Assembly (NCBI GenBank): GCA_019246375.1
Contig: JAFAQO010000195.1
Span: 1-13,934 of the forward strand
Reading direction: 5' to 3'
Source: Mycobacterium sp.
GTDB taxonomy: Bacteria > Actinomycetota > Actinomycetes > Mycobacteriales > Mycobacteriaceae
Length of the DNA stretch: 13,934 nucleotides
Shown here: in pieces, positions 1,601 to 4,743 of the stretch
How the letters are laid out: every line of letters starts with the position of its first letter
Numbering within the stretch: the first letter of the stretch is position 1
Notes under the pieces: generated by a model
Told to the model about the DNA's origin: nothing
The model's database searches: none
Seen by the model: the letters and a program-made list of their open reading frames with translations, nothing else
Translations under genes and position numbers: made by a program

Positions 1601-2086
1601 CTATGTACTGACGCCGGAATCAGCCCCGATGTTCGAGGACATGTACGAAGGCGCGGCGCCGCCGACCGCGCCTGAACCCACTGCGTGGAGCAGCCGCTTG
1701 AATTCACGGCGCTCGCTGGGGGAGAGGTGGGCCAGTAACCGCTCGTCGGCGACGTGCACGGCGGCTTCGGCGCGCTTCAACAGTGCTTTGCCCTTGCTGG
1801 TAAGCCGGGCCGGCAGCGCCCGGCCCGATGACACCGTGGCCGGCCGCGTGACCGCGCCCATATCTTGCAGCCCACGCAGCACCAGGTTCATCGCCTGCGG
1901 TGACACATTGGTGTCACGGGCAAGTTCGGCGCTGGATTGACCGGGCAGCATAGACAGGGCCCGCAAACACACGAACTCCGGTAACCCCAACCCCACCGGC
2001 GCCAACTCCGCCGTCACATGCGGTCGGAGCACCGCCATCACGCGATACAGCAGGTAGCCCAACGGCTGATCCTCGTAATCACTCAT
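1601..2086 (-). CDS. MarR-family transcriptional regulator (Rv2887-like)
   Basis: A 161-residue MarR winged-helix repressor. The N-terminal dimerisation helix holds PLGYLLYRV, followed by LPEFVCLRAL and a helix-turn-helix SSAELARDTNVSPQAMNLVL. The wing is AVTRPATVSSGRALPARLT, and C-terminal dimer helices follow. The sequence resembles, from memory, M. tuberculosis Rv2887 (139 residues), the repressor of methyltransferase gene Rv0560c; about 20 extra C-terminal residues rich in Gly/Ser/Ala appear here. The ATG at 2086 gives the family N-terminus; an ATG at 2095 or a TTG at 2110 is also in frame. No Shine-Dalgarno is visible, so initiation may be leaderless. It diverges from a methyltransferase gene, and its start codon abuts tandem inverted repeats, so it probably represses both itself and its neighbour. 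MarR ligands are often small phenolic compounds; the ligand here is unknown. Confidence 0.9.
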   Translation of the reverse strand: MSDYEDQPLGYLLYRVMAVLRPHVTAELAPVGLGLPEFVCLRALSMLPGQSSAELARDTNVSPQAMNLVLRGLQDMGAVTRPATVSSGRALPARLTSKGKALLKRAEAAVHVADERLLAHLSPSERREFKRLLHAVGSGAVGGAAPSYMSSNIGADSGVST

Positions 2087-2121
2087 GTCAAACATATTGA
2101 CACATATCAACCAGGTTGATA
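2086..2121. promoter_or_regulatory. Tandem MarR-type operator boxes (first copy)
   Basis: Two 17-bp inverted repeats lie 19 bp apart, measured start to start. Box A (2086-2102) is TGTCAA-5-TTGACA. Box B (2105-2121) is TATCAACCAGGTTGATA, a perfect 8-bp-arm palindrome around one A. The right arm of box A is the -35 hexamer of the methyltransferase promoter, and the end of box B enters its -10; the left end of box A touches the MarR start codon. Binding here would shut both divergent genes. The same arrangement recurs at 4704-4739, with 27 of 36 positions identical by hand count. Confidence 0.75.
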
Positions 2122-2125
2122 GACA
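2097..2125 (+). promoter_or_regulatory. Promoter of the first methyltransferase gene, probably leaderless
   Basis: TTGACA (2097-2102), a 17-nt spacer and TAGACA (2120-2125) form a sigma-A-like promoter with a perfect -35 and a weak -10. The methyltransferase ATG at 2133 lies 7 nt after the -10, where transcription would start. This predicts a leaderless mRNA and agrees with the absence of a Shine-Dalgarno sequence. Confidence 0.6.
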
Positions 2126-2132
2126 AGACGGT

Positions 2133-2816
2133 ATGAGCGAAGACTTTGATTTCGAATTCGATTCGGTCTACCGTGGCGAATCCGCCCAAATCGGAGTAGG
2201 GGTTCGTCCCCCGTGGAGCCTTGGGGAACCCCAACCTGAGCTTGCTGCGCTGATCGAGCAGGGCAAATTTCACGGCGACATCCTCGATGTCGGGTGCGGG
2301 GAAGCCGCCGTGTCGCTCTACCTCGCTGAACGCGGGTACACCACAGTCGGCCTGGACTTGTCACCCACCGCGATCGACTTGGCCCGCCGCGAGGCCGAGA
2401 AGCGCGGCTTGACCAACGCCAGCTTCGAGGTGGCCGACATCAGCTCGTTCACCGGGTACGACGGCAGATTCGGCACCATCGTCGACAGCACCCTGTTTCA
2501 CTCCATCCCGGTCGAGGCCAGAGATGGATACCAGCAATCGATAACGCGCGCCGCCGCACCGGGCGCGTCATACTTCGTGCTGGTGTTCGACAAGGCCGCG
2601 ATCCCGGAAGGCCCACCGTATGCGGTGACCGCCCAGGAATTGCGCGAGGTGGTGTCAAAGTGCTGGCTTATTGACGACATCAAACCCGCCAAGATCCATG
2701 CGAACTTCCCCGACGGCCTCACGGAGATGCCGGGTGCGCCGCGCATGAAGGTCGAGGACGAGCCCGATGGCCGCAAGTCGGTTGCTGCTTGGCTGCTATC
2801 GGCACATCTGGGCTGA
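2133..2816 (+). CDS. SAM-dependent class I methyltransferase (Rv0560c-like)
   Basis: A 227-residue small-molecule methyltransferase with a Rossmann-type SAM domain. Motif I is DVGCG at residues 52-56 and the acidic residue binding the SAM ribose is in TTVGLDLSPTAIDLA. The following strands are SFEVADISSF and FGTIVDSTLFHSI, and the family N-terminal signature PPWSLGEPQPELAALI precedes motif I. Related mycobacterial enzymes (Rv0560c, Rv1403c, Rv1405c, from memory) methylate quinone-like, phenolic or heterocyclic compounds. Adjacency to a MarR gene under a shared operator suggests induction by such a compound. The ATG at 2133 is chosen over 2085 because it fits the promoter and because the upstream frame would run through both operator boxes. 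A paralogue lies at 5973-6650. The downstream fusion gene begins 42 nt later and is probably co-transcribed. Confidence 0.9.
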   Translation: MSEDFDFEFDSVYRGESAQIGVGVRPPWSLGEPQPELAALIEQGKFHGDILDVGCGEAAVSLYLAERGYTTVGLDLSPTAIDLARREAEKRGLTNASFEVADISSFTGYDGRFGTIVDSTLFHSIPVEARDGYQQSITRAAAPGASYFVLVFDKAAIPEGPPYAVTAQELREVVSKCWLIDDIKPAKIHANFPDGLTEMPGAPRMKVEDEPDGRKSVAAWLLSAHLG

Positions 2817-2858
2817 CGGCCGCCGTTTTAAACCTTGCTTCCGGTCGAGAGCTCTTGC

Positions 2859-4541: not shown

Positions 4542-4590
4542 GCAAACCGCAATATGCTCAGCGACATGGCACAACCGATTCCCTCTCATT

Positions 4591-4620
4591 GACTCCGGCG
4601 GCCACCGGGCCGTCGGATTC
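4591..4620 (+). terminator. Hairpin terminator candidate after the ABM-MDR fusion gene
   Basis: Two 13-nt arms, 4591-4603 and 4608-4620, can pair around a 4-nt loop (ACCG). One C/T mismatch and one G/U pair interrupt an otherwise continuous G+C-rich stem. It lies 50 nt after the fusion-gene stop and about 85 nt before the next promoter. There is no U-tract, which is common for mycobacterial terminators. Confidence 0.5.
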
Positions 4621-4703
4621 ATCCTCGAGCGCAGCCGGTAGCTCGTCCGGACAAGCCCTGAGTTGTGGGGTCTCACTGGCAACGAATCGCTAAGCAAGTG
4701 CCG

Positions 4704-4739
4704 TATCAACCACATTGCCATGTATCAAGCGCGTTGATA
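4704..4739. promoter_or_regulatory. Tandem MarR-type operator boxes (second copy)
   Basis: Box B (4723-4739) is TATCAAGCGCGTTGATA, a 6-bp-arm inverted repeat with the same arms and 5-bp gap as the box at 2105-2121. Box A (4704-4720) is TATCAA-5-TTGCCA, a weaker inverted repeat, again 19 bp upstream. The right arm of box A again supplies the -35, and box B again ends inside the -10. The register against the promoter is identical to that before the methyltransferase gene, so one regulator probably controls both promoters. Confidence 0.7.
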
Positions 4740-4743
4740 TGAT
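4715..4743 (+). promoter_or_regulatory. Promoter of the PadR-like gene
   Basis: TTGCCA (4715-4720), a 17-nt spacer and TATGAT (4738-4743) match sigma-A consensus well. The predicted transcription start near 4750 gives a leader of about 50 nt before the PadR-like ATG at 4799. The operator boxes overlap both hexamers, so occupancy should block RNA polymerase. Confidence 0.65.

What the first reader, a model, noticed from the sequence alone, without database searches (positions are those of the whole stretch)
2086..4743. Same tandem two-box operator embedded in the same register in two promoters 2.6 kb apart
Regions 2086-2121 and 4704-4739 each hold two 17-bp inverted-repeat boxes with starts 19 bp apart. 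Box B is TATCAA-5-TTGATA in both. In both, the right arm of box A is the -35 hexamer, and the last two bases of box B are the first two of the -10 after a 17-nt spacer. By hand alignment 27 of 36 positions agree. One promoter drives a methyltransferase opposite a MarR gene and the other drives a PadR-like regulator, so a single repressor, most simply the MarR protein, should control both as a local regulon.
Basis: partly seen in the sequence, partly recalled or inferred. Interest (0 to 1): 0.82.

Follow-up and report, generated by a model that had tools for sequence, protein, structure and literature searches.

The report
Shared repressor switch in mycobacterial promoters
Two neighbouring genes in this mycobacterium carry the same paired DNA sites built into their promoters, most likely the docking sites of one repressor protein; the pairing is widespread in mycobacteria and appears to extend a switch known from the tuberculosis bacterium to a second kind of target.

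Summary
The window holds two tandem pairs of 17-bp dyads, starts 19 bp apart, 27 of 36 positions identical; 300 shuffles gave none. A third pair lies elsewhere in this genome, before another methyltransferase. The pattern hits 296 of 396 genus genomes, its reverse none; all 30 loci fetched lie before methyltransferase relatives. It goes with the MarR gene: 294 both, 2 pair only, 27 MarR only, 73 neither. The MarR is of the Rv2887 family, the methyltransferase an Rv0560c relative, a known repressor-target pair whose published promoter has the same register. That half is a relative of a known switch.

New is the PadR-like gene. Of 115 upstream regions scored, 74 carry the boxes 33-35 bp apart, box A's right arm as -35 and box B's left arm as -10; 3, all in the window's clade, show the 19-bp form; 18 show none. 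All 120 genomes with the gene have MarR. The published Rv2887 footprint reads like the neighbouring gene's 3' end, not these boxes. M. tuberculosis letters were not obtained; binding is untested.

The parts
2086..2102 (+). Box A of the methyltransferase operator, TGTCAA-N5-TTGACA; right arm (2097-2102) is the -35; its first base is also the last base of the complement of the MarR start codon (2084-2086)
2105..2121 (+). Box B of the methyltransferase operator, TATCAA-N5-TTGATA; its last two bases begin the -10 (2120-2125, TAGACA)
4704..4720 (+). Box A of the PadR-like operator, TATCAA-N5-TTGCCA; right arm (4715-4720) is the -35
4723..4739 (+). Box B of the PadR-like operator, TATCAA-N5-TTGATA; its last two bases begin the -10 (4738-4743, TATGAT)
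1601..2086 (-). MarR-family gene of the Rv2887 family (67% identical over 134 aligned residues), the proposed repressor
2133..2816 (+). Rv0560c-type SAM-dependent methyltransferase, first target
4799..5434 (+). PadR-like regulator, predicted winged helix after a low-confidence Gly/Phe-rich N-terminus, second target
4749..4778 (+). Predicted hairpin in the leader between the PadR-like promoter and its start codon (weak: z -1.5 on its own)

Best explanation
Both pairs are operators of the divergently encoded MarR protein. Dimers sit side by side on box A and box B. Box A covers the -35 (and touches the start codon of marR itself), box B the spacer and the start of the -10, so RNA polymerase is shut out, and marR probably limits itself as well. 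A small aromatic ligand (salicylate-like or a heterocyclic toxin, by analogy with Rv2887 and Rv0560c) releases MarR, and the methyltransferase that modifies such compounds and the PadR-like regulator come on together. The same MarR should also hold the third pair elsewhere in the genome. Shown here: the boxes, their register, their conservation, their co-occurrence with MarR, the gene families. Inferred: binding, repression, ligand, autoregulation. In the window's clade the PadR-like gene stands behind a methyltransferase-type promoter, while in most relatives scored its own promoter is built from the same two boxes 33-35 bp apart.
For: Boxes against chance. Third pair in the genome. 296 of 396 genus genomes, reversed control 0. 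All 30 loci fetched with that search (of the matches in 296 genomes) lie upstream of a methyltransferase relative, 17 of 30 with MarR divergent. TTGACA invariant in 42 promoter rows, which were picked by a pattern that already fixes most of it and include repeats of a few loci. Box A touches the marR start codon in 25 of 27 divergent loci, against 3 of 13 stand-alone ones. Pair with MarR: 294 both, 2 pair only, 27 MarR only, 73 neither, Fisher 5.6e-54, not corrected for kinship; lists read by hand, MarR at E 1e-20 or better. PadR-like gene (E 1e-15 or better) in 120 genomes, all 120 with MarR. PadR-like upstream regions: pairs spaced 33, 34, 35 or 19 in 77 of 115, a single box with 0-1 mismatches in 20 more; the reversed control gave no pair of 4 or fewer mismatches in 115 and no single box under 3 mismatches in the 39 regions re-examined. 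The MarR of the window's clade groups with the MarRs that mostly lie divergent to PadR-like genes (99/93). In print: Rv2887 binds upstream of and represses Rv0560c (passages); in the Rv0560c promoter, mutation of TATATC gave high constitutive activity and mutations just downstream of the -35 raised basal activity (passages and section 11).
Against: No binding or expression data for this organism. The published Rv2887 footprint (passages) is a different, GC-rich sequence. A pattern I made from the published Rv0560c promoter elements did not return M. tuberculosis, so the match of registers rests on the paper's text. Mutation of TGTGTT in that promoter, which changes the -35 itself, left basal activity nearly unchanged and abolished induction, so it does not separate operator from promoter. 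Two genomes have the pair without a detected MarR and 27 the reverse; 13 of these 27 have the PadR-like gene. 18 of 115 PadR-like upstream regions show no good box. The window MarR is not in the Rv2887 clade. The assembly is 81% complete, so another MarR could be missing.
Confidence: 0.85

Rival explanations
1. The boxes are sites of the PadR-like protein, which regulates itself and the methyltransferase.
For: The PadR-like gene lies behind one operator, PadR proteins often act on their own promoter (recalled), and most of its relatives scored carry the boxes too.
Against: The PadR-like gene is in 120 of 396 genomes, the methyltransferase-type pair in 296; 13 of the 120 lack that pair, so 189 genomes have the pair with no PadR-like gene detected.
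Confidence: 0.05
2. Two different MarR-family repressors, one missing from this assembly, share the work: an Rv2887 orthologue holds the third site and the window MarR the two local ones.
For: Many genomes have two or more matches to this MarR at E 1e-20 or better; Rv2887 forms its own clade; the assembly is 81% complete.
Against: Only one close MarR in the own genome; the two next matches score 26-27 bits. The boxes follow the same pattern at all three sites.
Confidence: 0.1
3. The two similar promoters are just a recent duplication of one promoter, kept without a regulatory role at the PadR-like gene.
For: The 19-bp form at the PadR-like gene was found at 3 of 115 regions, all in the window's clade, and the sequence behind it resembles a methyltransferase start (by eye).
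Against: 74 of 115 upstream regions of this gene carry the same boxes in another spacing, so the link to MarR looks older than the duplication.
Confidence: 0.05

Closest known systems
Rv2887-Rv0560c of M. tuberculosis (MarR repressor, salicylate-inducible methyltransferase)
   Same: Same protein families; same promoter register by the text of PMC3317779: TTGACA, 17 bp, TGA before the -10, palindrome across the -35.
   Different: Here marR lies divergent to its target and a PadR-like gene is a second target. The MarR lies in another clade than Rv2887. The footprint printed for Rv2887 does not look like the boxes.
MarR-family operators with two dyads over -35 and -10, such as MexR and E. coli MarR (recalled; searches returned no paper)
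   Same: Two dimer sites covering promoter hexamers (recalled).
   Different: Here the same box pair is used in two spacings, 19 and 33-35 bp.

Membership tests
Rv2887/Rv0560c regulatory pair | MarR of the Rv2887 family | tested here: met
   175 bits, E 8.6e-51 to PDB 5hsm; 67% identity
Rv2887/Rv0560c regulatory pair | Strict orthology of the MarR to Rv2887 | tested here: not met
   Tree of 113 rows, 138 columns: Rv2887 lies in a separate clade (100/99) from the window MarR
Rv2887/Rv0560c regulatory pair | Target is an Rv0560c-type methyltransferase | tested here: met
   360 bits to PDB 7bgg, Rv0560c
Rv2887/Rv0560c regulatory pair | Palindrome across a TTGACA -35, 17 bp to an extended -10 | tested here: met
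   against section 11 of PMC3317779; the M. tuberculosis letters themselves were not found in the searches made
Rv2887/Rv0560c regulatory pair | Release by salicylate and relatives | not testable with these tools
   needs binding or expression work
MarR family | Pfam MarR domain over cut-off | tested here: met
   PF01047 30.2 bits, cut-off 24.6; MarR_2 just under its cut-off
PadR family | Pfam or NCBIfam PadR domain | tested here: not met
   no PadR match in Pfam up to E 10 nor in NCBIfam at E 0.001
PadR family | Remote homology and winged helix | tested here: inconclusive
The name PadR-like is kept, not membership

The most novel reading that the evidence does not exclude
Mycobacteria use one repressor box in two interchangeable promoter plans: boxes 19 bp apart with box B inside the spacer (methyltransferase genes), or 33-35 bp apart so that box A's right arm is the -35 and box B's left arm is the -10 (PadR-like genes). 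In the window's clade the PadR-like promoter was swapped between plans without leaving the regulon. This box pair, not the printed 27-bp footprint, is the true operator of the Rv2887 family.
Probability: 0.6. Interest if true: 0.6.

Novelty: new variant of a known kind. Interest (0 to 1): 0.5.

Why it matters
It gives a precise, testable operator for a repressor family tied to salicylate response and chemical detoxification in mycobacteria, and adds a regulator as a conserved second target. It also raises the question whether the DNA in the published Rv2887 complex was the conserved operator, which bears on how that structure is read.

Tried and rejected
PadR-like protein as the general binder: rejected by distribution. 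Chance: rejected. Confirming the operator in M. tuberculosis letters: not achieved. The published 27-mer (up to 3 mismatches) was absent from 16 small genomes; an exact pattern made from the published promoter elements returned 13 other records; among 61 genomes around G029 only a 3-mismatch copy in G029 was found. Single boxes in the own genome: 26 places with up to 2 mismatches, 6 of them in the three pairs, so 20 others against 11 for the reversed pattern; of these only C141 was looked at. The PDB search with the PadR-like profile gave only chance matches. Two papers on Rv2887 were not held. Literature searches for a MarR-PadR link, for MexR operators and for the Rv0560c substrate gave nothing of use. 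Of the 24 papers that hold Rv2887 I saw passages of four, of one of them also one section, and the listing of the rest.

Rows dropped or doubtful: one search lists 124 places of the PadR-like gene; I took 122 of them, one (G060) twice, so 123 loci, leaving out two partial matches. 8 of the 123 held no PadR match in the stretch fetched (L127, L157, L160, L162, L167, L169, L170, L192) and were dropped, leaving 115. Of these two were only 65 and 92 bases long and are among the 18 without a box, as are both rows of G060. The pairs scored at 29 and 36 bp (L143, L164) were taken as single boxes; one pair counted at 34 bp (L177) is doubtful, with 4 mismatches. The genus sample is 396 genomes drawn from a larger group, and the list of matches is capped. 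The tree has few columns (138) for 113 rows and is rooted at the midpoint; some rows labelled stand-alone lie near PadR-like genes beyond my 420-base limit.

Full report
What is there. The pair is far beyond chance: 2 in the window against 0 in 300 shuffles. The genome (3.86 Mb, 736 contigs, 81% complete) holds a third pair with the same 19-bp register, on contig C480 at 457-492, in front of a further methyltransferase beginning MTDVQNFDFDFEPAYRGE.

How far it spreads. A search for TRTCAA-N5-TTGNYA-N2-TRTCAA-N5-TTGAYA with up to 2 mismatches hit 296 of 396 genomes of the genus; the reversed pattern hit none. A stricter pattern over the order hit 31 of 298 genomes: by the printed rows 30 of 35 genus members and 1 of 263 genomes outside the genus, G504. 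All 30 loci fetched with the genus search lie upstream of a relative of the window's methyltransferase; in 17 of 30 a MarR gene is divergent. Among 13 named records hit by an exact pattern built from the published Rv0560c promoter elements, 9 lead into a methyltransferase relative (among them M. triplex, M. alsense and M. terramassiliense), one leads into what looks like a cut-short remnant, one is Kribbella catacumbae with a MarR nearby (72% identity), and two are unrelated bacteria in which I see no box A. M. tuberculosis was not among the 13. In 42 promoter rows the TTGACA of box A is invariant, though the rows were picked by a pattern that fixes most of it, and a start codon commonly lies some 10 bases behind box B, which suits the leaderless transcripts common in mycobacteria (recalled).

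Who binds. The MarR gene next to the first operator matches Rv2887 of M. tuberculosis best in the PDB (175 bits), and the methyltransferase matches Rv0560c best (360 bits; one PDB name is heterocyclic toxin methyltransferase). In print, Rv2887 binds upstream of Rv0560c, with footprint and complex structure (PMC5526998, passages seen), and its overexpression represses Rv0560c (PMC4301838, passages seen). Across 396 genomes the methyltransferase-type pair and MarR go together: 294 both, 2 pair only (G015, G103), 27 MarR only, 73 neither (Fisher 5.6e-54, not corrected for kinship, lists read by hand; only 20 of the 75 genomes without MarR are named, the rest follow from the list of those with it). 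In 25 of 27 MarR-methyltransferase divergent loci the first base of box A is the last base of the complement of a start codon for marR, against 3 of 13 stand-alone methyltransferases, so marR is probably controlled by the same site.

What was known. Schuessler and Parish mapped the Rv0560c promoter: TTGACA, 17 bp, TGA before the -10 TATATA, a palindrome over the -35. Mutating TATATC gave high constitutive activity; mutating TGTGTT, which changes the -35 to TGGACA, left basal activity nearly unchanged and abolished induction; mutations just downstream of the -35 raised basal activity (PMC3317779, section 11 and passages seen). By arithmetic this is the same register as the finding; that TATATC is the left arm of box B is my inference, since the letters of that promoter were not seen. 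The methyltransferase part is therefore a relative of a known switch.

What is not in the papers seen. First, the second target. The PadR-like gene occurs in 120 of 396 genomes, all 120 with MarR, and so in none of the 75 without. Of 115 upstream regions scored, 77 carry two boxes with 4 or fewer mismatches in total: spaced 33 bp in 52, 34 in 11, 35 in 11 and 19 in 3; a further 20 carry a single box with 0-1 mismatches; 18 carry none; the reversed control gave no pair at 4 or fewer. In the 33-35 class box A's right arm is mostly TTGACA and box B's left arm mostly TATCAA, 16-18 nt apart, so the two inner arms are themselves the -35 and -10. The 19-bp form at this gene was found only in the window, G083 and G251. 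In G060 the gene follows the methyltransferase closely with no good box of its own and would be co-transcribed with it. In the MarR tree the window's clade (98/69, so weakly resolved) groups (99/93) with a clade of 62 MarRs, 46 of them labelled divergent to PadR-like genes, while Rv2887 lies in another clade (100/99). So the MarR-PadR link looks old and the promoter plan changed.

Second, the footprint. The 27-bp sequence printed as protected by Rv2887 reads, on the other strand, DRRPPFS-stop. That resembles the end of a gene upstream of the methyltransferase in two relatives: IDRRAPFS-stop a few bases before the boxes in L110, and a 24-of-27 copy over MIDRRPPFR-stop in G029. In G029 that copy lies 1.7 kb from the methyltransferase, with a reading frame that looks like a transposase (by eye) in between, yet the box pair stays with the methyltransferase. 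The authors say their site does not overlap the region found by promoter mutation (passage). I take the conserved boxes as the better candidate for the specific operator.

The PadR-like protein. Pfam gives no PadR match even at E 10. A profile of 44 relatives matches a PadR protein of the same genome (89.8%, E 1.8e-6), though single-sequence BLAST finds nothing beyond the Gly/Phe-rich part. The predicted model has a winged helix at 59-126 after a low-confidence stretch at 1-58 (mean pLDDT 73, pTM 0.51). Two of the 120 listed relatives bear a PadR name in some source, nearly all other named ones are called hypothetical. It is kept as PadR-like.

Verdict. Observation confirmed. The shared-repressor reading is strongly supported by comparison and unproven at the bench. 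The methyltransferase switch is a relative of a known one; the PadR-like branch with its two spacings, and the doubt over the published footprint, are the new parts.

Noticed in passing
G000 contig C480, 457-492 (L003, L016): Third tandem pair in the same genome, in front of another Rv0560c-type methyltransferase and beside a gene that looks like an amidase (by eye, no family search). In M. tuberculosis the Rv2887 gene lies beside an amidase gene (recalled).
   Followed up: partly
G000 contig C141, 3311-3327 (L006 1501-1517): A single exact dyad TGTCAA-N5-TTGACA about 26 bases before a likely GTG start on the minus strand, in front of a gene not identified here; a possible fourth target.
   Followed up: partly
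window 4749-4778: Hairpin in the leader of the PadR-like gene; leaders of relatives G060, G083 and G251 also fold into hairpins with different stem letters (z -0.5 to -2.3), which may be a conserved RNA element.
   Followed up: partly
window 2835-4541: Long reading frame with quinone oxidoreductase-type domains at residues 281-564 and some 280 N-terminal residues without a Pfam match, between the methyltransferase and the PadR-like gene.
   Followed up: no
window 5506-5925 and 5976-6638, minus strand: F420H2-dependent quinone reductase-like gene and a second methyltransferase 48% identical to the first: the region looks like a detoxification cluster.
   Followed up: partly
L114 about 170-206 and 3003-3476 (Kribbella catacumbae): A complete two-box operator and a MarR 72% identical to the window's, outside the order, with a different gene behind the operator, suggesting transfer.
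   Followed up: partly
L110 around 3530-3610: Operator kept in front of what looks like a methyltransferase cut short early (by eye): the promoter outlives its gene.
   Followed up: no
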